A stretch of DNA of 64,000 nucleotides from NCBI RefSeq assembly GCF_000243335.1, contig NZ_JH597773.1:2385728-2449727 (forward strand), written 5' to 3'. A model generated the notes under the pieces. It was not told the DNA's origin. It saw nothing but the letters and a program-made list of their open reading frames with translations, and searched no databases. Both the position numbers and the translations under genes were made by a program. This document shows, in pieces, positions 3,702 through 35,061 of the stretch (within the stretch, counting starts at the first letter, position 1; each line of letters starts with the position of its first letter). The stretch comes from Leptonema illini DSM 21528. Its GTDB lineage: Bacteria > Spirochaetota > Leptospiria > Leptospirales > Leptonemataceae.

Positions 3702-5189
3702 CTATATATGAAACGCAGCTCGCAGAGGCAGTGCCTCTTCAAGGCGCCCCTCGACCTTCAATCTGCCCTGTAAAAAGGCCGTCTCGATCCTCTTTTTACC
3801 GAGCAATATGGCCGCCCACGTCCCTGCCGGAATCGTTATCGATAAGACGGGCTCGGCGGGTAACCCGACCTCAAGCCTGGGTTTGCCGTCCGCGATATAA
3901 AGACCGAAGGCCATGGCCGGCGCCGATCCGTCGGCAAGCAGCGAGATGCCGATGGTGCTGCTCCAGCCCTTTGCCTGACTCTCATCATAACGATCGAGCA
4001 GGTTCAGCGTAAGCGATTCGGCCTGCGATGCATAACGCTGCGTGCTACCGAAGAGGCGTGCGAGCAATCCCTCTTTCGACTGTAACTTTTTATCTGCGCG
4101 GCGAAGACGCATCCTGGTTAGCAGAGGCCATGTGGAATCAAGCTCTTCGACGAAGACCTCACGGTGTTCGACGGCCGAACGCTGGATGGCCAGGCTGAGG
4201 CGCAGAATCTCATAGCCCGATGTTCCATCAAGATCGGGCTTCGCCCTGCCCTGAATGGATTCGATGAAGTTCTGCGTCGCTCCGCGAAAGCCCTCCAGCC
4301 AGTCCGACGCAATATCTGAAAAATGCTGCCATCCCTTCTCGTTAAAGAGACTGATGATCGGCCCCGTATCAAGACGTCCCGTGCAGCGACGCACGATGGC
4401 GACGCCCCGGCTACCGCTTACCTCGAACCATTCGTCGTTCGCATAATAATCCGAGGGGATGGACAGCTCGGCCGCATGCGCGTACTCGCACATGCCGTAA
4501 CGCATCGGATCTCTGTATTTCCAGGTGACGACGGCAGGCGAATCGATCACCCCGTCGATGGAATCGATCCAGGCATGCACGCGATCGATGGAGCCGAGCA
4601 GATAGGTGGCCGCCGCCCAGAGATGATGACCGTGATCGAAGGTCTGCATGCCGCGTCCTTCTTCGCGCTCCTGCATACGCCATTTCCAGGACGAGGCCGG
4701 AACCTGCCATCCACCGAGACCGCCGCTGATAAACTTGATGCGCAGATTTGTCGGCGTACCTATCTCGCCGGCATCGATCATCTCGCGAAGACGCACAAGC
4801 GGCGGATAATAGATATAGTTATCCGTCAGTCGAAAGACGCATCCCGATGCCTTCATCGCCTCGATCATACGCCGGGCCTTCTTGAGATCGATCGTCATCG
4901 GCTTCTGTAGGGCGACATGCTTCTTTGCCCGCGCGGCGGCGATGACCATGGGCTCATGCAGTTTCTGCGGCGTCAGAATCTCCACGGCGTCGATATCGGG
5001 ATCGGCAAGCAGGGCATCGTAGTCCGTATAAACTCGTTCGGCATTCCATTCCTGTTTACGCTTCGCCACAAGGGTCGGATCGGTATCGCAGACGGCGAAA
5101 ATACGGGCATCTTCGCGGCCCGCATAACCCGGAGCATGCATGTCGGCGATGCGTCCGCAGCCGACGATGGCGACGTGTATCGGTCTCAT
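3702..5189 (-). CDS. Gfo/Idh/MocA oxidoreductase fused to an SCP2-like domain
   Basis: The first ~370 residues are a Gfo/Idh/MocA dehydrogenase: the Rossmann glycine motif IVGCGRIADMHAPGY at 8-22, an LQKP (Q95-K96-P97) where the family usually has EKP, and FDHGHHLWAAA in the substrate domain. The last ~110 residues are extra. They include GLYIADGKPRLEVGLP, a tryptophan followed by AAILLGKK and GRLKVEGRLEEALPL, which resembles a sterol-carrier-protein-2 (SCP2) lipid-binding fold. The 495-residue length exceeds the usual 330-390. Its start overlaps the end of the YdcZ-like gene by four bases. NAD(P)-dependent oxidation or reduction of a sugar-like, perhaps lipid-linked, substrate is inferred. 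The Glu-to-Gln change at EKP is conservative but worth noting. Confidence 0.8.
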   Translation of the reverse strand: MRPIHVAIVGCGRIADMHAPGYAGREDARIFAVCDTDPTLVAKRKQEWNAERVYTDYDALLADPDIDAVEILTPQKLHEPMVIAAARAKKHVALQKPMTIDLKKARRMIEAMKASGCVFRLTDNYIYYPPLVRLREMIDAGEIGTPTNLRIKFISGGLGGWQVPASSWKWRMQEREEGRGMQTFDHGHHLWAAATYLLGSIDRVHAWIDSIDGVIDSPAVVTWKYRDPMRYGMCEYAHAAELSIPSDYYANDEWFEVSGSRGVAIVRRCTGRLDTGPIISLFNEKGWQHFSDIASDWLEGFRGATQNFIESIQGRAKPDLDGTSGYEILRLSLAIQRSAVEHREVFVEELDSTWPLLTRMRLRRADKKLQSKEGLLARLFGSTQRYASQAESLTLNLLDRYDESQAKGWSSTIGISLLADGSAPAMAFGLYIADGKPRLEVGLPAEPVLSITIPAGTWAAILLGKKRIETAFLQGRLKVEGRLEEALPLRAAFHI

Positions 5190-5656
5190 CGCACGACCAG
5201 GATCAGGCCGACAAGCATGAGCGCCAGGCCGCCTATCTTCTTGAACGAGATCGGATCAACGGGCGAACCCAGCCATCCGAAGTGAGAGAGCAGAAGACCG
5301 ATCAACACCTGGCCTGTGACGAGAAGCAGGAATCCCGTCGCCGCCCCGCCCGTGCGCTCAGGAATGAGAAAGGTTACGGCAAAAACGATGGAGGCACCGA
5401 AGGCGCCGGCCAGAAAGAGCGGGCGACTGCCGGCCTGAAAGAGCTCGGTCATCGAGCCCGGGCGGAATACGAAAAAATACACGGCGGCAAGAGTGGCTCC
5501 AATCAGCCAGAAGAACAGATTCGCCGCAGCGGCGGCCTTCATGGGGCTACCGGCGACGGCCTGCATCTCGCCGCCCAGTCGGCCGTTCATGGCAAGGTGA
5601 AGGCCGATGGCCATGCCCACCCCCACCGTAATCAGTGCATAAACTAACTTTTCCAT
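5186..5656 (-). CDS. YdcZ/DUF606-type DMT transporter
   Basis: A 156-residue protein with five predicted membrane helices beginning MEKLVYALITVGVGMAIGLH and carrying ANLFFWLIGA and TGQVLIGLLLSHFGWLG, typical of the small YdcZ (DUF606) members of the drug/metabolite transporter superfamily. It is the first gene of the leftward operon with the oxidoreductase and GPH symporter; its stop overlaps the next start (ATGA). The substrate of the family is not established. Confidence 0.8.
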   Translation of the reverse strand: MEKLVYALITVGVGMAIGLHLAMNGRLGGEMQAVAGSPMKAAAAANLFFWLIGATLAAVYFFVFRPGSMTELFQAGSRPLFLAGAFGASIVFAVTFLIPERTGGAATGFLLLVTGQVLIGLLLSHFGWLGSPVDPISFKKIGGLALMLVGLILVVR

Positions 5657-5978
5657 ATTGAGATCTTCCTGAATGGTTTTTCTGGTTTTATGTTTTTCTC
5701 TATAAAACTTAACCCTATCGATTCCAATCGAATCCAGAGAATCGATTATCTCGATCTATGTAATGAGAACTCCCGTTTACGTAAACGGAAAATTTTGGTC
5801 ATACCAATCCATAAGAAGGCCGTCTTTCAGGTCAAGAGCAATAGAAGGGCTAAATTTCGGACAGTTCAGAGCGGAAAATGGGACGGCGGACCAACTTTGC
5901 CTTCTTTTGACAGAAAAAAAGTCCTCCGCTTCAAAATAGGATTGAACGCTGAGCTTTTTCGTGTACAATTCCTGTCGC
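5657..5978. other. intergenic region between divergent operons
   Basis: A 322-bp AT-rich, non-coding spacer separates the leftward transporter operon from the rightward glycogen synthase. It holds a 16-bp perfect palindrome (5773-5788, listed separately) and several ATCGATT-like words around 5716-5755, including CGATTCCAATCG. Promoters for both directions are expected here, but I could not assign clear -35/-10 pairs. Confidence 0.6.
5773..5788. promoter_or_regulatory. 16-bp perfect palindrome, probable operator
   Basis: CCGTTTACGTAAACGG is a perfect palindrome with a central CG-containing core of the kind bound by LacI/GalR-family repressors. It lies 117 bp upstream of the YdcZ-like start and about 190 bp upstream of the glycogen synthase. 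A sugar-responsive operator for the transporter operon is the simplest reading. No LacI-family gene is in the window. Confidence 0.55.
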
Positions 5979-7805
5979 ATGAGAGAAGCCTGGGTCGTCG
6001 AAACTGCATGGGAGGTCTGCTGGCAGCTGGGTGGCATCTATACCGTTCTTCGTAGCAAGGCGCCTGCGATGACGGCCCGCCTTCAGGATCACTACTGTCT
6101 GGTAGGTCCCTATAATCAGGCCACAGCCTCCATTGAGTTCGAAGAGACGAACGAAGATACGCCCTTTCATCGGGCGGCGGCCGAGCTGGCAGCGAAAGGG
6201 GCACATATCCATTGCGGTCGATGGCTTGTCAGCGGACGTCCGCTTGTCGTGCTCATCGACTTCCTCGCCTCCTGGAATAAGATCGCCGAGTGTAAGTACT
6301 TTTTCTGGAAGGATCATCAGATCGACGCCGGCGACGAGGCTGAGGTGAACGACGTCGTGCTTTTCGGCTACCTTGTCGCCGACTTCTTTCAGCAGCTGCA
6401 GGCGCAGATCGCCCTTCTTCCCGAGGCCGAACGTTACCCTGTCATCGGACATTTCCATGAATGGATGGGAGGGGCGGCCATCCCCATTTTAAAGAAGCGC
6501 CACGTCGGCATAGCGACGGTCTTTACGACACATGCAACGCTGCTCGGTCGCTATCTTGCGTCCGATGATCCTTTCTTCTACGGGCGGCTTCCGTCCATCG
6601 ACGCCTACAGAGCGGCCGGCGATCGCGGCATCTACAACCGCTTCGCCATCGAACGGGCCGCCGCACACGGCGCCGACTGTTTCACGACCGTGAGCGACAT
6701 CACCGCCGTCGAGGCCGAACATCTGCTCGGACGCCGGCCCGATCAGGTTCTACCGAACGGTCTGAACATACGACGCTTTGCCGCTCTTCACGAATTCCAG
6801 AACCTGCATCAGCTTTACAAGCAGGCCATCCATGAATTCGTCATGGGTCATTTTTACCCGAGTTATACATTCGACCTCGATAAGACGCTCTATCTTTTCA
6901 CGGCCGGTCGCTACGAATACCGCAACAAAGGCATGGACCTTTTCATAGAGTCGCTGGCGAGGCTGAACTTCAGACTGAAAGAAGAGAAATCGGATCAAAC
7001 CGTCGTCGCCTTCATCGTCACAAAGGCGCCCGTGCGCGCCATCAGCGTCGACGTTCTCAAAAGCCAGATGATGTTTCGCGATCTGAAGCATACGTGCGAG
7101 CGCATCAGCCATCGTATGACCGAACGCCTTCTGTATTCGGCCGCTCTCGGCAAGGTGCCGACGATTGAAGATCTGCTCGAAGAGAGCTCGCAGATGGCGC
7201 TGAAGCGGCAGCATCACGCCTGGAGGCGCCAGGGATGGCCGGCCATCTGCACGCATGACATGCTGCATGACGCCGAAGACGCCGTCCTGAATCAGCTGCG
7301 CACCTGTCATCTGTATAACGCACCGGAAGATCCGGTCAAGGTCGTCTATCATCCGGAGTTCCTGACCGGTACGAGTCCGCTGCTCGGCCTGGACTACGAT
7401 CAATTTGTTCGCGGAACACATCTGGGCGTATTCCCGAGCTATTATGAGCCATGGGGCTATACTCCGATGGAATGCGCCGCCCTGGGCATCCCCTCGATTA
7501 CAAGCGACCTTGCGGGCTTCGGTTCGTATATTCAGCGTCAGATGCCCGATCACGAAGAGAAAGGCCTGTACGTCTGCCGCCGTAATATGCTCAGCTTCGA
7601 CGACAGCGCCAATCATCTCGTCGATCAGCTCATGAGCTTTATCAAAACGAACCGTCGCGACCGCATCGAGATGCGAAACCGCGTGGAGAGCACCAGCGAC
7701 CAGTTCGACTGGAACGTGCTTGTCGAGAACTACTGGAAGGCGCATGACCTGTCGCTCTCGTTCTTCGAGCGCTTACAGAAGGGCGGATCTACAAAAGCGG
7801 AATAG
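5979..7805 (+). CDS. GT3-family (eukaryote-like) glycogen synthase
   Basis: This 608-residue protein matches the glycogen synthases of animals and fungi (glycosyltransferase family 3), not the bacterial GlgA family GT5. Diagnostic blocks, in order, are VVETAWEVCWQLGGIYTVLR near the N-terminus, HFHEWMGGAAIP, FTTHATLLGRYLA, LPNGLNIRRFAALHEFQNLH, AGRYEYRNKGMDLFIESLAR and FPSYYEPWGYTPMECAALG. It should extend alpha-1,4-glucan from UDP-glucose. The ATG at 5979 is preferred over a GTG at 5961 because homology begins four residues in; no strong ribosome site is visible. The regulatory arginine cluster of the eukaryotic enzymes is not obvious. It stands alone, without branching or debranching enzymes nearby. 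Confidence 0.9.
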   Translation: MREAWVVETAWEVCWQLGGIYTVLRSKAPAMTARLQDHYCLVGPYNQATASIEFEETNEDTPFHRAAAELAAKGAHIHCGRWLVSGRPLVVLIDFLASWNKIAECKYFFWKDHQIDAGDEAEVNDVVLFGYLVADFFQQLQAQIALLPEAERYPVIGHFHEWMGGAAIPILKKRHVGIATVFTTHATLLGRYLASDDPFFYGRLPSIDAYRAAGDRGIYNRFAIERAAAHGADCFTTVSDITAVEAEHLLGRRPDQVLPNGLNIRRFAALHEFQNLHQLYKQAIHEFVMGHFYPSYTFDLDKTLYLFTAGRYEYRNKGMDLFIESLARLNFRLKEEKSDQTVVAFIVTKAPVRAISVDVLKSQMMFRDLKHTCERISHRMTERLLYSAALGKVPTIEDLLEESSQMALKRQHHAWRRQGWPAICTHDMLHDAEDAVLNQLRTCHLYNAPEDPVKVVYHPEFLTGTSPLLGLDYDQFVRGTHLGVFPSYYEPWGYTPMECAALGIPSITSDLAGFGSYIQRQMPDHEEKGLYVCRRNMLSFDDSANHLVDQLMSFIKTNRRDRIEMRNRVESTSDQFDWNVLVENYWKAHDLSLSFFERLQKGGSTKAE

Positions 7806-11504: not shown

Positions 11505-12036
11505 GGAAATAAAAGCCTTCCCTATAGGCAGATGATTGTTGTAAGGCAGGCGTCGCGATGGCAGCGGCGCCGGCTTAACCTTGCTCACTTCATGTTTCAA
11601 GATCCTGTACCGTCAGCCCGGTAATGCCCGATATTTCGTTGAAAGGGTAACCCTTCTTGAGCATAGCCCTTACAGTCACGTGCGCCTGCATCTCTATGTT
11701 GATCCTGCGGCCTCTTGAATCCCTTGCAAGGATATCGAGAATCGCATTCTTATCGTCGATGGCCTCACCGGGTAGTTCCGGGTTTTGAATAATGGGGGAC
11801 TGGAAGTTGATGAGGAGGCCAGCATAAAGTCGGGCGCGACATAATTTCGTTACTGTCGCGGCAAAAATGTTCCGGTAATCTTATTATGTCGCCGGTGAAG
11901 GACCTCACGCAGCCATTAACATCTCGAAGTCATGAAGTCTCTGCATTTTTTCCACAGGGACGCTTGTTTTTGCTGGACCGATTAACTATTGGGCAGTAAA
12001 ATCATCTATCGACTGCAAACATGCAATAAACCATTC
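11505..12036. other. left border of the accessory island
   Basis: A 532-bp gap between glyA and vsr. It contains a decayed Rpn-type nuclease fragment (11590-11831, listed separately), followed by about 200 bp of AT-rich sequence in which I see no gene. The base composition drops here and stays lower until about 16.9 kb. Confidence 0.6.
11590..11831 (-). pseudogene. remnant of an Rpn/PD-(D/E)XK nuclease-transposase gene
   Basis: Reading leftward, an open frame of about 80 codons gives INFQSPIIQNPELPGEAIDD, then AILDILARDSRGRRINIEMQ, the nuclease core of the Rpn (recombination-promoting nuclease, YhgA-like) family. It then jumps directly to KKGYPFNEISGITGLTVQDL, which belongs to the C-terminus of such proteins. 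The N-terminus and the whole middle are missing, so this is an internally deleted relic. It marks past mobile-element activity at the edge of the Vsr-methylase island. Confidence 0.7.
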
Positions 12037-12444
12037 ATGACCGACGTCTTTTCTAAAGAACAGCGCTCCTGGATTATGGGTCGCGTAAAGGGATCAGGAA
12101 ACAAAACCACGGAGCTTGCCCTGATTGCGCTTTTTCGCAAATACCGAATCACCGGTTGGCGTAGGGGCAGCAACTTACCCGGAAGGCCGGATTTTGTGTT
12201 CCCGACTGTCAGGGTCGCTATCTTCGCCGACGGCTGCTTCTGGCATGGTCATGACTGTAGAAATACCCAGCCCCTTGGAAACGGCAGCTTCTGGCGCGAA
12301 AAAGTCGAAAAGAATAGAAAGCGAGATCGCCGAGTAAGCCGAAAATTAAGATCTATGGGCTGGTCGGTTTACCGGATTTGGGAATGCCGAATAAAAAAAA
12401 GGAAGCTGCCGGCCACTCTTCTGGCCAAAGTCGGACCTTCATAA
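12037..12444 (+). CDS. vsr: very-short-patch repair endonuclease (Vsr)
   Basis: A 135-residue Vsr-type nuclease. It has the family start (MTDVFSKEQRSWIMGRVKG), LPGRPDFVFPTVRVAIFADG with the catalytic aspartate, the GCFWHGHDC block with the metal-site histidine and zinc ligands, FWREKVEKNRKRDRR and the late VYRIWEC. Vsr nicks T:G mismatches left by deamination of 5-methylcytosine, or, in some R-M contexts, acts as the restriction nuclease. The ATG at 12037 is chosen by homology; the open frame reaches 11989. It is four bases upstream of the GHKL gene and forms one operon with it, the receiver gene and the cytosine methylase. Confidence 0.92.
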   Translation: MTDVFSKEQRSWIMGRVKGSGNKTTELALIALFRKYRITGWRRGSNLPGRPDFVFPTVRVAIFADGCFWHGHDCRNTQPLGNGSFWREKVEKNRKRDRRVSRKLRSMGWSVYRIWECRIKKRKLPATLLAKVGPS

Positions 12445-12448
12445 TCAT

Positions 12449-15355
12449 ATGAAACGCGTATCATTCAAAACCCGGGCGAGAGTAGTCGACCTTCTCGGAC
12501 GTGAGCAAATTGCCGATGCACCCACCGCGCTTACGGAGCTTTTGAAGAATGCCGTCGACGCTCAGGCCGAAACAGTGACGATTCACTTCCACTCTCAAGC
12601 GGGCCTTCTCGAAGTCAGCGACGACGGGCTTGGCATGCGACCGGAGGACTTGATGGACCGCTGGCTGGTGCTTGCCACGGACTCCCGGCACGGTAAGCCA
12701 GATCCGGAATGGTATAAATATGCAACACCGGAGCAAACAAAACGCTTACAGCACGATAAGCCTTTCGGTGAGAAAGGCATCGGACGACTTGCCGTGGCCA
12801 GTCTTGGAAATGGCGTTCTCGTATGGACGAGATGGGGTAAAGGCAAAAATTTTAAGCGCTCAATGGCCCTCGTTCACTGGCATCTTTTTCGGTATCCCAA
12901 GCTGAATCTCGATGATGTCTATATACCGTTTATGGAACTGGGGGCTCAGGATAACCCCAAAGATGCGGCAAAGCTTCTACTCGAGTCTCTAAAGGATTGG
13001 TACGAGAGACATAGCAAGGATTTCTATATCGATAAAAAATCCTCCATTGATCCGAAAACGATCAGCAATGACATAAAGCGAGGCTTTGCGCAGGCCATAG
13101 ACTCTATCGTTGATTATCATGCAGACTCACCGGGGACCAGCTTTTTTATTCTTTCCACAACTGATGAAGTTCCGGATATTTTTCAATCCGGAGCGGAAAG
13201 GAAAGGAGAAAGTAATTGGCCCTCAGAGGGATTGCGCGCTATTCTTGGTTTTTGCAACCCATTCTCCGATGATGCTCCTCGCATCAAAATTGAAGCCTTC
13301 GCAGACGACCGACCAGCGTTTGAAGGGAAGAATGATTTCTGGAAATCGAAAGATTTTGAAGAGTGTGATTACTTTATTCATCTCCGCTCTAACTCGGAAG
13401 GATTCGTTAAAGGAGAGATTAGACATTATTCAAAAAAAATAAAATACGAATTTCAAACGCCACAATTGCCGCCGCAAAGTGATTATCCTGGCCCGTTCGA
13501 AATCAAGCTTGGATATGTTCTCGGTAAGCCGGAAGAATCACGATTAACACCGGATCGATTCGCATACTTCAGTAAAAAGTTGGAGGATATCGGCGCTCTT
13601 TACGTCTACCGAAACGGCATAAGGGTCATGCCATACGGTAGACAGGATACAGACTTTTTGGAATTCGAATATAGGCGCAGTTTAAACGCTGGCACTTATG
13701 TATTCTCCCATCGACGTATGTTCGGGTATATCGGAATCGATTCCGAAAATAACCCTGGCCTCATCGACAAGGCTGGGCGCGAAGGATTGATCAAAAACAA
13801 GTATTACCGGGGGCTATACAAGATCGCTACGTCAATCTTTATCGATATTGCTAAGACCCATTTCGCAACCAAAGTTAAGAAAGAACAGAAATTGAAACTG
13901 GATACGGCCTTAAGAGCGGAAATAGAGGTGCAGACCCGTTCTTTCTTAGAAGAGTTTAAAAAATCCCGAAAATATTTGAGCGAAGCCGAAAAGCTTCTCG
14001 AAAAAAAATACGCCGACCTGTATTCTCGCTCCAAGGATATAGAGAGAAGTTCAATTGATACAATCGATCGATTTTTCCAAGATTTAGAAGCTCTACGAGA
14101 TCGTTTCCGGCTTGATATAGATACTATGTCAATGGAAATCCCTTCCCTTGCTTCTCCCTCACCGAAAGTCCTCGCTGCGTGGGATTCTTACCAGACAGAC
14201 CGCCAACAATTTGAAATCCGCTGGAACCGAGACCTGCTCCAGCTTCAGCGAAAACTATCTGCGGCCTTAAAGCGTAACGCGGACAAAATTAAATATCTAA
14301 ATAAACTGAGAACGCGCCTATCGAGCAATGAACTCCGTATCCAAGCAAGGTTAGAGCAGAAGCGAGACCGTCTAATCGATGGGGCTCGCCAGATTGCCGA
14401 AAAAAAAGCGCCGATATGGTTCAACAACCATGTTGAAAAAATAAAGAGGATCCCCCGCGATCTGCTTGGTGAAGATCCACCTCAAGCAGTCGTCAATGGG
14501 TCTGACCAAGCCGCTGTCGATTTTGAGGATGCGATCCTAAAGCAAGATATTGTAGCCAAGGGCGAACTCGAGCCTTACTGGGAAGGTATTTTAACCGATA
14601 TCGAGCGAATAGCCACCGCACGCAGCATGGATGGCGCCGTAGGTGCCTTGAGTCGTGAAATGGAAGCCCTCAAGGAACGAGAATTCGTGTACATTGAACT
14701 TGCGCAGCTTGGTCTAATTGTCGAAGGGATCGACCATGAGTATCGCACGCTCTTCTCTCAAGCGAAGAAAGACTTCAAAACTCTGCGCTCCGGCAAAAAT
14801 ACAGTCGACAGCGAAACTTTCGATCACCTGTACTCCGTCTTTAACGCGATCAATGAAAAGATCGAATCCCTAGCTCCTCTATATCGAGCAGGAAGAAGAA
14901 GATACGAAACGGTAACAGGCGACAGCATCCTAAGCTTCATAAAAAGTCGCTTCCAACAGGAATACGAGACTGGCTTGATTCAAGTAGACAAGTCCTTCTC
15001 AACGTTAAGATGGAGCAGCACAAACAGGTCAGTTCTATTTGCTGCCATCATCAACGTAATCAACAATGCCCTTTATTGGATTGAGAAATCGGTCACCCCA
15101 AAGGAGATCCGGATCACTCTAGATCACGAGGATTTTGTGATCTCCGATTCGGGCCCCGGGGTGGCACCGAGAGATGCGGACCGAATCTTCGAACCGTTCT
15201 TCTCCCGCAAGCCCTCAGGACGAGGCTTAGGACTGTATCTCTCCAAAACGGCGATGCAACAGCATGGCATGGATTTAACGCTGGCAGACGAGCCGAGGAA
15301 AAAGGCCCTCCAAGGGGCTAACTTTGTTTTCAAGAAACCCGAACAGGAAGAATGA
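12449..15355 (+). CDS. double-GHKL ATPase: MORC/Hsp90-like N-terminus and histidine-kinase-like C-terminus
   Basis: A 968-residue protein with two ATPase modules. The N-terminal GHKL domain has TELLKNAVDA (E30, N34), VSDDGLGM (D59, G60, G62) and GEKGIGRLAVASLG (107-120), as in Hsp90, MutL and prokaryotic MORC/paraMORC proteins. The middle (about 460-720) is rich in charged heptads and probably coiled-coil. At 753-769, LGLIVEGIDHEYRTLF resembles a histidine-kinase dimerisation helix with phospho-acceptor H763. The C-terminus is a HATPase_c domain with INVINNALYW (~868-877), ISDSGPG (~898-904), FEPFFSRK and GRGLGLYLSKTAM. It lies between vsr and the receiver-domain gene (1-bp gap). Prokaryotic MORC-type ATPases are known to travel with restriction-modification genes; a sensor/motor of a defence system is inferred. 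Confidence 0.85.
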   Translation: MKRVSFKTRARVVDLLGREQIADAPTALTELLKNAVDAQAETVTIHFHSQAGLLEVSDDGLGMRPEDLMDRWLVLATDSRHGKPDPEWYKYATPEQTKRLQHDKPFGEKGIGRLAVASLGNGVLVWTRWGKGKNFKRSMALVHWHLFRYPKLNLDDVYIPFMELGAQDNPKDAAKLLLESLKDWYERHSKDFYIDKKSSIDPKTISNDIKRGFAQAIDSIVDYHADSPGTSFFILSTTDEVPDIFQSGAERKGESNWPSEGLRAILGFCNPFSDDAPRIKIEAFADDRPAFEGKNDFWKSKDFEECDYFIHLRSNSEGFVKGEIRHYSKKIKYEFQTPQLPPQSDYPGPFEIKLGYVLGKPEESRLTPDRFAYFSKKLEDIGALYVYRNGIRVMPYGRQDTDFLEFEYRRSLNAGTYVFSHRRMFGYIGIDSENNPGLIDKAGREGLIKNKYYRGLYKIATSIFIDIAKTHFATKVKKEQKLKLDTALRAEIEVQTRSFLEEFKKSRKYLSEAEKLLEKKYADLYSRSKDIERSSIDTIDRFFQDLEALRDRFRLDIDTMSMEIPSLASPSPKVLAAWDSYQTDRQQFEIRWNRDLLQLQRKLSAALKRNADKIKYLNKLRTRLSSNELRIQARLEQKRDRLIDGARQIAEKKAPIWFNNHVEKIKRIPRDLLGEDPPQAVVNGSDQAAVDFEDAILKQDIVAKGELEPYWEGILTDIERIATARSMDGAVGALSREMEALKEREFVYIELAQLGLIVEGIDHEYRTLFSQAKKDFKTLRSGKNTVDSETFDHLYSVFNAINEKIESLAPLYRAGRRRYETVTGDSILSFIKSRFQQEYETGLIQVDKSFSTLRWSSTNRSVLFAAIINVINNALYWIEKSVTPKEIRITLDHEDFVISDSGPGVAPRDADRIFEPFFSRKPSGRGLGLYLSKTAMQQHGMDLTLADEPRKKALQGANFVFKKPEQEE

Positions 15356-15356
15356 A

Positions 15357-16874
15357 ATGACGGCGACGATTGAAGACTTGAGATCTCAAATAGCAAGGAA
15401 ATATTGCAGGACTTTGACCGTTATCGACGATGATGCCTACCAAACCGGAACCTGGGAATCAACGAACCCTGTGATTGACGAAACGTACGTAGCTCTCGTA
15501 AAGAAGTGTAACGAGGATTCTATTCTTTGCCATTTGCAGTACTATCCAAACGGAAAATTGGGCGGCCCCGATATTGAATTTTACAAAAAATATTATGATC
15601 GAGCTGTTCAAACCGCAAAAAACTCTGAGGTTGTAATCCTCGATTGGTATCTCGGTGCTGAAAGTTCGGAGCACTCTATTGCTTTGCTCAAAGAGCTTGC
15701 AGCGGACGGAGCTCTGCGATTTGTGATCGTATATACCAAGCATAAGGAAGATGCGACGAGTAGTCTGGAATCCGAAGGCTATCATCGATTAACTATCTCC
15801 ACGAATCACTCCAACTCGCCTGTCGAAGACGACGATACTTTTCAACCCATTGGGGTGCACGACAGCCAGACGGCAGCCGTTGATTTTTTTTCCAATGAAA
15901 ATAGCAGTATCTTCATCTTGGTACAGGATAAGCCTTCGGAACCTGAGAAAAATACGCCTGATCTCTTAACGCTCATTACCCAACTGATGCTGGCTGCCTA
16001 CCCTGACTTCCTTCATTGGGCTGGATTGGAGTTGCATACTTTCATCCGCGAGAAAATGCCCCAATTAATATCCAAGCTGCCGACTGGCACTGACCACGCA
16101 ATCGTGTATCAGAGCTTATTTACCGATCTCCCGGACGATGTTGCCCACCAAGTTGCAGTTATTCATCTTGAACAGATGGAGCACGAACTTTTCAAAGAGC
16201 CCTTACAAGCGGTTTGCGATTTATATCTTCACCAAGCCATTGAGAAAGACAAGGAATGGACCAAAATCAAGGACGAGCCGACGATAAAGAAAAGGGATAA
16301 CGCTCGAACAAAAATAAACGAAAAAGAAAAAACGGGAACAAATGGGTTGAAACTCACCACTGCTATGAATCAACCTGATTCAGCCTTTCGGGCACATACC
16401 AAGCTTGCCTATATACAAGAGTCCTACATTGACATCAGTCAAGAAAAGCTATTACTGAGGCGAGGAACCATCTTCAAGAAGAAGCAGGCCACCGACGATG
16501 GATGGGATTTCCTGCTATGCATTACACCAGAGTGCGATCTTTACAGATTAAATGACGGACAACATATTCATTTTATTCAAGGAAGACGTAAGGACAATCT
16601 TGACAAGACTAGCGGTCCTTTGTTTTTTCAAACCTTTGTGTCGGAGTCTACCCAAATCGAATGGGAAAGCTTTCGAACCAAGGTAATTCTCGCACCGACA
16701 GGCAGCGCTGCCGGCTTTCCATCTATCTCAGATGCGGCTTTCACTGATTACGAATACGTTGGCCAAATCAAAAGTCGGTTTGTCGATCGCATAATGCAAC
16801 GTGGCTGGTCACAGCAAACACGTGTTGGCGTCGATACTGCAGAATATATAAGGTTTGTTAGAAGTGAGAAGTAA
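15357..16874 (+). CDS. receiver-domain protein with a large uncharacterised C-terminus
   Basis: A 505-residue protein. Its first ~135 residues look like a divergent response-regulator receiver: TVIDDDAYQ (acidic pair at 24-26), VVILDWYLGAE with candidate phospho-aspartate D96, and RFVIVYTKHKE with T127. The β-α spacing is stretched between the first two motifs by an insertion of about 40 residues. The remainder has no DNA-binding output domain I recognise; a conserved-looking FLLCITPECDLYRL lies at ~395-410. It starts one base after the GHKL/kinase stop codon and overlaps the methylase by 11 bases, so all four island genes are tightly coupled. The natural partner for phosphotransfer is H763 of the upstream protein. 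Confidence 0.75.
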   Translation: MTATIEDLRSQIARKYCRTLTVIDDDAYQTGTWESTNPVIDETYVALVKKCNEDSILCHLQYYPNGKLGGPDIEFYKKYYDRAVQTAKNSEVVILDWYLGAESSEHSIALLKELAADGALRFVIVYTKHKEDATSSLESEGYHRLTISTNHSNSPVEDDDTFQPIGVHDSQTAAVDFFSNENSSIFILVQDKPSEPEKNTPDLLTLITQLMLAAYPDFLHWAGLELHTFIREKMPQLISKLPTGTDHAIVYQSLFTDLPDDVAHQVAVIHLEQMEHELFKEPLQAVCDLYLHQAIEKDKEWTKIKDEPTIKKRDNARTKINEKEKTGTNGLKLTTAMNQPDSAFRAHTKLAYIQESYIDISQEKLLLRRGTIFKKKQATDDGWDFLLCITPECDLYRLNDGQHIHFIQGRRKDNLDKTSGPLFFQTFVSESTQIEWESFRTKVILAPTGSAAGFPSISDAAFTDYEYVGQIKSRFVDRIMQRGWSQQTRVGVDTAEYIRFVRSEK

Positions 16875-17886
16875 ACCGACTGCCATCGATCTCTTCAGCG
16901 GATGCGGCGGAATGACGCAGGGGTTGAAGTCCGCGGGCTTTAGCGTTTTAGCCTCCGCCGAAATTCTTGCCGTAGCGCGTGAGACGTATCACGACAATCA
17001 TCCCGAAGTTCGCCAGTATACCGATGTGCGGCGGTTAACAGGAGCGACGCTGCTATCCGATTTGAATTTGCGCCCAGGCGAGCTTGATCTTCTCGCAGGC
17101 TGCCCGCCCTGTCAGGGTTTCTCGACCATTCGCACGAGGAATAAGCCGAATCCGGTCGCCGACGAGCGCAATGAACTGATTTTCGATTTTTTACGACTTG
17201 CGCTTGCTCTACGACCGAAAGCCATCCTCATGGAAAACGTCCCGGGTTTGATGAAGGATCGCCGTTTAGAAAAAACGGCTCGTAGACTGCGAGCCGCAGG
17301 GTATGACGTTGAGGTCGACGTCATCGATGCGGCGGATTTCGGCGTACCGCAGCGCCGGAAGCGGATGATATTAGTGGCGACGCGAACCGGCAGAGCCAGT
17401 CTTCCCTCGGGGGACAGCAAACAGCGCACCGTCGCCGATGCTATCCGTGATCTGCCGAAGGCGGGGAAATCGGGAATACACTGGCATGACCTGAAACGAG
17501 ATCACTCGGAAAAGGTGATGAATATAATCCGCCGTATTTCGAAGGACGGGGGTAGCAGGAGCGACCTCGGAAAGGAGCAATTGGAATGCCACAAGCGAAC
17601 GGACGGCTTTCGCGACGTTTACGGTCGATTATCCTGGAACAAAGTCAGTTCCACGATCACCCGATCATGCGTTAACCCTTCTAAAGGAAGGTTTATTCAT
17701 CCCGAAGAAGACAGGGCTATCACGGTTTTCGAGGCTGCTCTATTGCAATCCTTCCCGAAGTCATATCGATTTTCCCGATCGATTAATCTGACCGAGGTCA
17801 CATCCATGATCGGTGAAGCCTTGCCCCCTTTGTTCGCCAAGAAGCAAGGCTTACATATCCGTCGAAAGATTCTGAACCGCCAATAA
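16864..17886 (+). CDS. DNA cytosine-5 methyltransferase (Dcm-like)
   Basis: A ~340-residue C5-methylase with all core motifs in order: DLFSGCGGMTQGLKSAGF (I), AGCPPCQGFSTIR (IV, catalytic Cys), LMENVPGLMKD (VI), GVPQRRKRMILVATR (VIII) and a late IGEALPPLFAKK (X). The target-recognition region between VIII and X is short (~130 residues). It should methylate a specific sequence that Vsr would police for deamination. The GTG at 16864 is taken as start; it overlaps the receiver gene by 11 bases. A TTG at 16855 is also possible. Confidence 0.93.
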   Translation: MRSKPTAIDLFSGCGGMTQGLKSAGFSVLASAEILAVARETYHDNHPEVRQYTDVRRLTGATLLSDLNLRPGELDLLAGCPPCQGFSTIRTRNKPNPVADERNELIFDFLRLALALRPKAILMENVPGLMKDRRLEKTARRLRAAGYDVEVDVIDAADFGVPQRRKRMILVATRTGRASLPSGDSKQRTVADAIRDLPKAGKSGIHWHDLKRDHSEKVMNIIRRISKDGGSRSDLGKEQLECHKRTDGFRDVYGRLSWNKVSSTITRSCVNPSKGRFIHPEEDRAITVFEAALLQSFPKSYRFSRSINLTEVTSMIGEALPPLFAKKQGLHIRRKILNRQ

Positions 17887-34819: not shown

Positions 34820-34895
34820 TGGGATGTAGCTCAGGTGGTGAGAGCGGCGACCTTATAAGCCGCGTCTGTCGCGGGTTCGAATCCCGTCATCCCGA
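34820..34895 (+). tRNA. tRNA-Ile (anticodon TAT), atypical
   Basis: A cloverleaf can be folded: acceptor TGGGATG/CATCCCG (34820-34826, 34888-34894; first pair U-G), TA at 8-9, D stem GCTC/GAGC, anticodon stem GCGAC/GCCGC with one A-C mismatch, loop CTTATAA with anticodon TAT (reads AUA, Ile), T arm GCGGG-TTCGAAT-CCCGT, discriminator A. The variable region is seven bases rather than five, and CCA is not encoded. Most bacteria read AUA with a CAT anticodon modified to lysidine, so a TAT isoacceptor in an accessory region is unusual. It may be functional or decaying. Confidence 0.7.
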
Positions 34896-35061
34896 CTGAA
34901 GCCGCTCAGGAATCATTCAACATGCTACGAATCCAGCCAGTCCGAATCGGCATCCATATCCACGGCCAGCTCATGTTTCTGGGAAATGCGGTAATGGCCC
35001 GCTGTATGTATGCCCTCGGGAATTCAGGCATTAGCGCAGCAACGGGCACAGGCTCTGGCAA

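What the first reader, a model, noticed from the sequence alone, without database searches (positions are those of the whole stretch)
12037..17886. Four-gene island: Vsr, double-GHKL MORC/kinase protein, receiver protein, cytosine methylase
Four genes lie head to tail with gaps or overlaps of 4, 1 and -11 bp: Vsr nuclease, a 968-residue two-ATPase protein, a receiver-domain protein and a C5-cytosine methyltransferase. Established knowledge: prokaryotic MORC/paraMORC GHKL ATPases associate with restriction-modification genes, and Vsr with Dcm-type methylases. What stands out is the addition of a histidine-kinase-like half with a candidate phospho-acceptor (H763, LGLIVEGIDHEYRTLF) and a receiver partner with candidate D96. 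Inference: a defence or DNA-quality-control system in which DNA state (methylation, mismatch, invading DNA) is sensed by the MORC-like ATPase and passed by phosphotransfer. The base composition is lower than in the flanks and a nuclease-transposase relic sits at the left edge, as expected for an acquired island. I know of no characterised system with this exact composition.
Basis: partly seen in the sequence, partly recalled or inferred. Interest (0 to 1): 0.9.

Follow-up and report, generated by a model that had tools for sequence, protein, structure and literature searches.

The report
Methylase-linked MORC kinase–response-regulator cassette
A spirochaete carries a horizontally acquired four-gene cassette of a published but functionally untested family, in which a DNA-clamp-like ATPase fused to a histidine kinase sits with its receiver partner and a DNA methylase; relatives lie in known anti-phage hotspots, so it is probably a phage-defence signalling system.

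Summary
Four genes (Vsr, 968-aa double-GHKL protein, receiver protein, C5-methylase) lie head to tail at 12037-17886, at 48.0% GC against 54.5% in the rest of the window. The genome is Leptonema illini 3055T. "No characterised system" holds for function only: Bellieny-Rabelo et al. 2021 (PMC8011034) defined both domains (HEF_HK PF19191, Response_reg_2 PF19192), their linkage, the nearby C5-methylases and Vsr. In 73 complete loci the receiver gene is directly downstream in 73, a C5-methylase is in the locus in 72, Vsr is within 4.5 kb in only 28. New here: models match MORC3 at the N-terminus and histidine kinases at the C-terminus; the receiver protein ends in a conserved, unassigned beta domain; no nuclease gene recurs; relatives sit in a P2 prophage's gpA-gpQ defence hotspot and the E. 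coli leuX defence island. Best reading: methylation-coupled self/non-self sensing by a MORC clamp, relayed by His-Asp phosphotransfer to an unknown output; Vsr is accessory. Defence and direction of sensing are inferred, untested.

The parts
11590..11766 (-). Relic of a PD-(D/E)XK (PDDEXK_2) nuclease-transposase at the left edge of the island
   Evidence: Pfam PF12784 E 1.7e-5, 25.1 bits against cut-off 27.4; translation
12037..12444 (+). Vsr mismatch endonuclease (135 aa from ATG). In the 151-aa TTG numbering, E42, D68, C83, H86 and C90 are invariant in 39 proteins
   Evidence: Pfam PF03852 and NCBIfam TIGR00632 above their cut-offs; conservation
12449..15355 (+). Double-GHKL protein (paraMORC/HEF_HK), 968 aa
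   Evidence: AlphaFold2 mean pLDDT 79.5
12473..13879 (+). MORC-like ATPase head plus transducer, residues 9-477; E30, N34 and K441 invariant
   Evidence: best match MORC3 5ix2_B, Z 18.9, rmsd 4.5 over 338 residues; residue counts
13880..14638 (+). Long helical, coiled-coil-like linker, residues 478-730
   Evidence: secondary structure of the model
14705..14893 (+). HEF_HK dimerisation and phospho-acceptor domain, residues 753-815; H763 codon at 14735-14737
   Evidence: PF19191 E 2.7e-6; H in 88 of 88
14897..15352 (+). Histidine-kinase catalytic ATPase domain, residues 817-968; N869, N873 and G-boxes intact
   Evidence: PF02518; ThkA 3a0t Z 16.8
15357..16874 (+). Receiver (Response_reg_2) protein, 505 aa from ATG (516 aa from TTG 15324)
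   Evidence: PF19192 E 6.1e-24
15402..15866 (+). Receiver domain; phospho-acceptor Asp codon at 15642-15644 (D107 from TTG, D96 from ATG)
   Evidence: match to AdeR receiver Z 11.4; D in 91 of 91
16446..16871 (+). C-terminal beta-rich domain plus long helix, residues 375-516 from TTG; conserved G381, C399, C404, D405, R500, G502; candidate output domain
   Evidence: model secondary structure; conservation; no convincing match in Pfam, NCBIfam or PDB sequences
16855..17886 (+). C5-cytosine DNA methyltransferase, 343 aa (GTG 16864 also possible as start)
   Evidence: PF00145 E 3.7e-60; TIGR00675 above cut-off

Best explanation
The cassette is a divergent member of the published HEF_HK/Response_reg_2 family. 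Shown by computation: it encodes a protein with a MORC-like ATPase head, a long helical linker and an intact HisKA-like kinase core; a receiver protein with an intact acceptor Asp and a conserved extra C-terminal domain; a C5-methylase; and Vsr. Inferred: the methylase marks the host genome; the MORC-like head clamps DNA in an ATP-dependent way and reports non-self or disturbed DNA (unmethylated or recently entered); this triggers autophosphorylation of H763 and transfer to the receiver Asp, which switches the C-terminal domain into an anti-phage or anti-plasmid output. Vsr repairs T:G mismatches from deaminated 5mC and is an accessory, not the effector.
For: Catalytic residues of both GHKL sites and H763 are invariant or nearly so in 88 HK proteins, the receiver Asp in 91. 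HK and RR evolve as a pair (Mantel r 0.92) and are adjacent in 73 of 73 complete loci. A C5-methylase is in 72 of 73 loci, but of varying type and side: HK-MT r 0.55, diverse target-recognition regions. Vsr is near only 28 of 73, so it cannot be the common effector. No nuclease family recurs next to the triad. Folds: MORC3 Z 18.9 and histidine kinases Z about 17, receiver Z 11.4. Context: L094, a P2-like prophage, carries the triad exactly between gpA and portal gpQ, the P2 anti-phage hotspot (PMC9122126). In E. coli, 214 of 5426 genomes match; of four genomes of the main type opened, three have it in a MobH/integrase element at a tRNA-Leu beside ahr-idnK and the fourth has the same element without the tRNA in view; the leuX locus is 'hotspot 37', described as the most occupied E. 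coli defence island (PMC12707154). A related GHKL protein, VcSduA, needs its ATPase Glu for phage defence (PMC12137116).
Against: No phage, phosphotransfer or methylation experiment was found for any member in the searched library. The output domain has no fold assignment, so the effector is unidentified. The model of the window receiver protein is weak outside the receiver (mean pLDDT 63). PADLOC has no model that matches the receiver protein. Hotspots also carry non-defence cargo (PMC9122126). In Leptonema the island stands alone between housekeeping-type genes (glyA-like and mrp-like by my reading).
Confidence: 0.5

Rival explanations
1. Regulator of the methylase or of restriction-modification genes. 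HK and RR form an ordinary cytoplasmic two-component system that tunes expression or activity of the C5-methylase (suggestion of Bellieny-Rabelo et al. 2021).
For: Constant linkage to a C5-methylase; the authors' own suggestion.
Against: The receiver protein has no recognised DNA-binding domain; MORC-like heads act on DNA in characterised relatives (established knowledge); residence in anti-phage hotspots; no restriction enzyme gene to regulate.
Confidence: 0.2
2. DNA repair or quality control. The MutL-like head acts with Vsr at T:G mismatches created by deamination at methylated sites.
For: MutL-like matches; Vsr in a subset; a Vsr-methylase joint reading frame in L052; MutL-Vsr cooperation cited by Iyer 2008.
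Against: Vsr within 4.5 kb in only 28 of 73 complete loci and weakly co-inherited (r 0.46). Does not explain the kinase-receiver relay or the prophage and island residence.
Confidence: 0.1
3. Unusual restriction-modification system with a hidden nuclease, in the HK protein's middle region or the receiver protein's C-terminal domain.
For: The N-terminal head resembles that of BbrUII/HgiDII restriction enzymes (NF050001 E 1.1e-17; PADLOC REase_II E 3e-8); a methylase is nearly always close.
Against: Only the ATPase part matches (63.8 bits against cut-off 550). The conserved C-terminal residues (G, C, C-D, R, G) are not a nuclease motif known to me, and no nuclease domain was found.
Confidence: 0.15

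Closest known systems
HEF_HK (PF19191) / Response_reg_2 (PF19192) two-component-like systems, Bellieny-Rabelo et al. 2021 (PMC8011034)
   Same: HATPase_c_3 + HEF_HK + HATPase_c protein adjacent to a Response_reg_2 protein; C5-methylase neighbour; Vsr in some genera; conserved His and Asp.
   Different: The window pair is divergent (nearest HK 35%, nearest RR 23% identical in this set); the same-strand order Vsr-HK-RR-MTase was not seen in the other loci.
paraMORC GHKL ATPases of restriction-modification operons, Iyer et al. 2008 (PMC2292703)
   Same: N-terminal GHKL+S5-type ATPase module near C5-methylases and Vsr.
   Different: The passages read describe no histidine-kinase half or receiver partner.
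VcSduA, paraMORC3-type Shedu defence protein (PMC12137116)
   Same: GHKL ATPase N-terminus, proposed to control an output domain; phage defence shown there.
   Different: Single protein with a PD-(D/E)xK nuclease; no kinase, receiver or methylase.
BbrUII/HgiDII-family restriction enzymes (NF050001)
   Same: Related GHKL head at the N-terminus.
   Different: Match limited to about 120 residues and far below the family cut-off.
Vsr with C5-methylase (E. coli Dcm-Vsr; Caulobacter ScmA-VsrA, PMC12907096)
   Same: C5-methylase functionally coupled to Vsr.
   Different: No MORC-kinase or receiver in those pairs.

Membership tests
HEF_HK/Response_reg_2 two-component-like system | Response_reg_2 domain above Pfam cut-off | tested here: met
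   85.6 bits against 27
HEF_HK/Response_reg_2 two-component-like system | HEF_HK domain above cut-off with HATPase_c_3 N-terminal and HATPase_c C-terminal (group 1 architecture) | tested here: met
   28.2 bits against 24.1; both HATPase domains above cut-off
HEF_HK/Response_reg_2 two-component-like system | Adjacent HK and RR genes | tested here: met
   gap 1 bp in window; 73 of 73 complete loci
HEF_HK/Response_reg_2 two-component-like system | Conserved core His followed by acidic residue; conserved receiver Asp and acidic pair | tested here: met
   H763-E764, D107, D35-D36
HEF_HK/Response_reg_2 two-component-like system | Phosphotransfer from HK to RR | not testable with these tools
   needs purified proteins
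paraMORC / MORC-like GHKL ATPase | GHKL ATPase plus S5-type transducer with intact Glu/Asn and transducer Lys | tested here: met
   E30, N34, K441 invariant; MORC3 Z 18.9, 338 aligned, rmsd 4.5
Classical type II restriction-modification system | Cognate restriction endonuclease gene next to the methylase | tested here: not met
   none in the window cassette; no nuclease family recurs beside the triad. Vsr is a mismatch endonuclease family and is absent near most loci
Anti-phage defence system | Residence in defence hotspots or prophage cargo loci | tested here: inconclusive
   Met for relatives: P2 gpA-gpQ locus in L094; leuX element in E. coli. Not shown for the window locus itself
Anti-phage defence system | Reduces phage plating | not testable with these tools
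   no experiment found in the searched library
Very-short-patch repair (Vsr) | Vsr family membership with conserved active-site positions | tested here: met
   TIGR00632 111.9 bits against 97.85; conserved E, D, H, C positions

The most novel reading that the evidence does not exclude
A methylation-coupled immune system in which a MORC-type DNA clamp, rather than an ordinary sensory domain, is the input of a true His-Asp phosphorelay, and the receiver protein's unassigned C-terminal domain is a new kind of defence effector.
Probability: 0.35. Interest if true: 0.85.

Novelty: new member of a known kind. Interest (0 to 1): 0.55.

Why it matters
It would link two worlds that are normally separate: MORC/MutL-type DNA-clamping ATPases and two-component phosphorelays. 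It could show what prokaryotic paraMORC proteins sense. Matches are in about 4% of complete E. coli genomes, mostly of a type seen in a mobile element at a known defence island, so the question can be tested directly in a laboratory host.

Tried and rejected
Plasmid tblastn with the receiver protein found nothing, although the double-GHKL protein found full-length relatives with a receiver gene next door; the receiver is too divergent for single-sequence search. A hidden nuclease in the receiver C-terminus was considered: no Pfam or NCBIfam family matches more than a few members weakly, no PDB sequence match is convincing, and Foldseek/VIA hits of the whole model come from the receiver part, so the fold of that domain is untested rather than new. 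Folding it alone was not possible (cap reached). A single conserved methylation motif across the family was considered and not supported: target-recognition regions split into types (median 30% identity against 55% in the catalytic part). Recurring extra operon genes were sought by clustering neighbours; no cluster is in more than 9 loci. The phage collection held no full-length relative. Repeats at the island ends gave only short, chance-like matches. An empty-site comparison was not done, as the search returned no second species of the genus.

Full report
WHAT IS THERE. The four genes are present as described: Vsr 12037-12444, a 968-residue double-GHKL protein 12449-15355, a receiver protein 15357-16874 (a TTG at 15324 gives 516 residues) and a C5-methylase ending at 17886. 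All are assigned by Pfam and, for Vsr and the methylase, by NCBIfam above cut-off. The segment has 48.0% GC against 54.5% for the rest of the window. Just left of it is a fragment of a PDDEXK_2 nuclease-transposase (E 1.7e-5). The assembly size and scaffold number (4,522,760 bases, 3 contigs) equal those published for Leptonema illini 3055T (PMC3746420). Of 48 genomes searched in the class, only this one has Response_reg_2, so horizontal acquisition is likely.

WHAT IS ALREADY PUBLISHED. Bellieny-Rabelo et al. [quoted passage not shown] Iyer et al. 2008 (PMC2292703) described paraMORCs next to methylases and Vsr. Library searches found no experimental study of the system. So the composition is known, the function is not.

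INDEPENDENT TEST OF RECURRENCE. An alignment of four double-GHKL proteins was used to scan public genomes and viral contigs with patterns from this one protein only, giving 86 loci in Proteobacteria, Verrucomicrobiota, Acidobacteria, myxobacteria, Bacteroidota and others. Among 73 loci with enough flanking sequence, the receiver gene is directly downstream in 73, a C5-methylase is in the locus in 72 and adjacent on the same strand in 63, and Vsr is within 4.5 kb in 28 (orders). HK and RR distances correlate at r 0.92, HK and methylase at 0.55, HK and Vsr at 0.46. The methylases differ in target-recognition region and lie before or after the pair. The unit is therefore HK plus RR, served by an exchangeable C5-methylase; Vsr is optional. 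In L052 one reading frame joins Vsr and the methylase.

ANATOMY. Both ATPase sites are intact: E30, N34, G107, G112, K441, N869 and N873 are the same in all 88 HK proteins and the G-boxes in 87, as are H763 and E759 in 88. In 91 receiver proteins the acceptor Asp is invariant and the acidic pair and Thr nearly so. The HK model (mean pLDDT 79.5) matches MORC3 (Z 18.9, 338 residues, rmsd 4.5), Hsp90s and MutL at residues 9-484, and histidine kinases at 745-968 (Z about 16-17). About 250 residues of helix lie between. The receiver model is weaker (mean pLDDT 63), but its first part matches response-regulator receivers (Z up to 11.4). The C-terminal 140 residues form strands and a long helix with near-invariant G381, C399, C404-D405, R500 and G502; no family or solved sequence matches convincingly. 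This is the candidate output domain, and its fold was not searched alone.

CONTEXT. No nuclease family recurs beside the triad, unlike a standard type II restriction-modification system. Integrases do occur near some loci. In L094 the methylase-HK-RR triad lies between P2-type gpA (4578-6611) and the portal gene gpQ (13185-14243), with terminase and scaffold genes following. Rousset et al. 2022 identify exactly this interval as the P2 anti-phage hotspot (PMC9122126). In E. coli, 214 of 5426 complete genomes match. Of four genomes of the main type opened, three show a MobH-relaxase/integrase element at a tRNA-Leu gene next to ahr and idnK, and the fourth has the same element without the tRNA in view. 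A review calls the leuX locus 'hotspot 37', the most occupied E. coli defence island (PMC12707154). In one search the methylase and most of the HK are missing beside an IS1, but the receiver gene remains. Two genomes of the other E. coli type have the triad in insertion-sequence-rich regions elsewhere.

MECHANISM. The most likely working model is that methylation marks self, the MORC-like head clamps and reads DNA, autophosphorylation at H763 is licensed by clamp state through the helical linker, and phosphotransfer to the receiver switches its C-terminal domain. Phosphotransfer is likely from conservation and co-inheritance. Anti-phage purpose is supported by hotspot residence of relatives and by the analogy with VcSduA (PMC12137116). 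What DNA state is sensed, and what the output does, are inference. Vsr fits best as repair of 5mC deamination; work in Caulobacter shows a Vsr-like protein can also make loss of a methylase costly (PMC12907096).

VERDICT. Real and correctly read anatomy; composition published; function open and now easy to test in E. coli. The points added here are the two hotspot contexts, the optional status of Vsr, the exchangeable methylase, the absence of a recurring nuclease partner and the conserved unassigned output domain.

Noticed in passing
window 34820-34896: ARAGORN calls a tRNA-Ile with anticodon UAU, unusual in bacteria, which normally read AUA with a lysidine-modified CAU anticodon. The genome also has a TilS homologue over the family cut-off.
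   Followed up: partly
L052:8202-10001: A single 599-residue reading frame matches both Vsr and the C5-methylase, apparently a natural Vsr-methylase fusion upstream of HK and RR.
   Followed up: no
L106 (E. coli AVS0750): An IS1 sits where the methylase and most of the HK are missing; a 615-bp HK remnant and an intact receiver gene remain, so the receiver alone appears tolerated.
   Followed up: no
L102, L105, L106, L107: In these E. coli elements the triad or its remnant is followed by a gene annotated as a phosphorothioated-DNA-binding restriction endonuclease, then ArdC, MobH relaxase and integrase.
   Followed up: no
G000:C1:3058738-3059739 and G000:C1:3908034-3908978: The genome has two further C5-methylases besides the window's, but only one Vsr.
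   Followed up: no
L009, L010, L011: HK-like proteins without a recognisable receiver gene next to them; in L010 the next gene (599 codons) is annotated as cytochrome P450, which may be a mis-annotation of a different partner.
   Followed up: no
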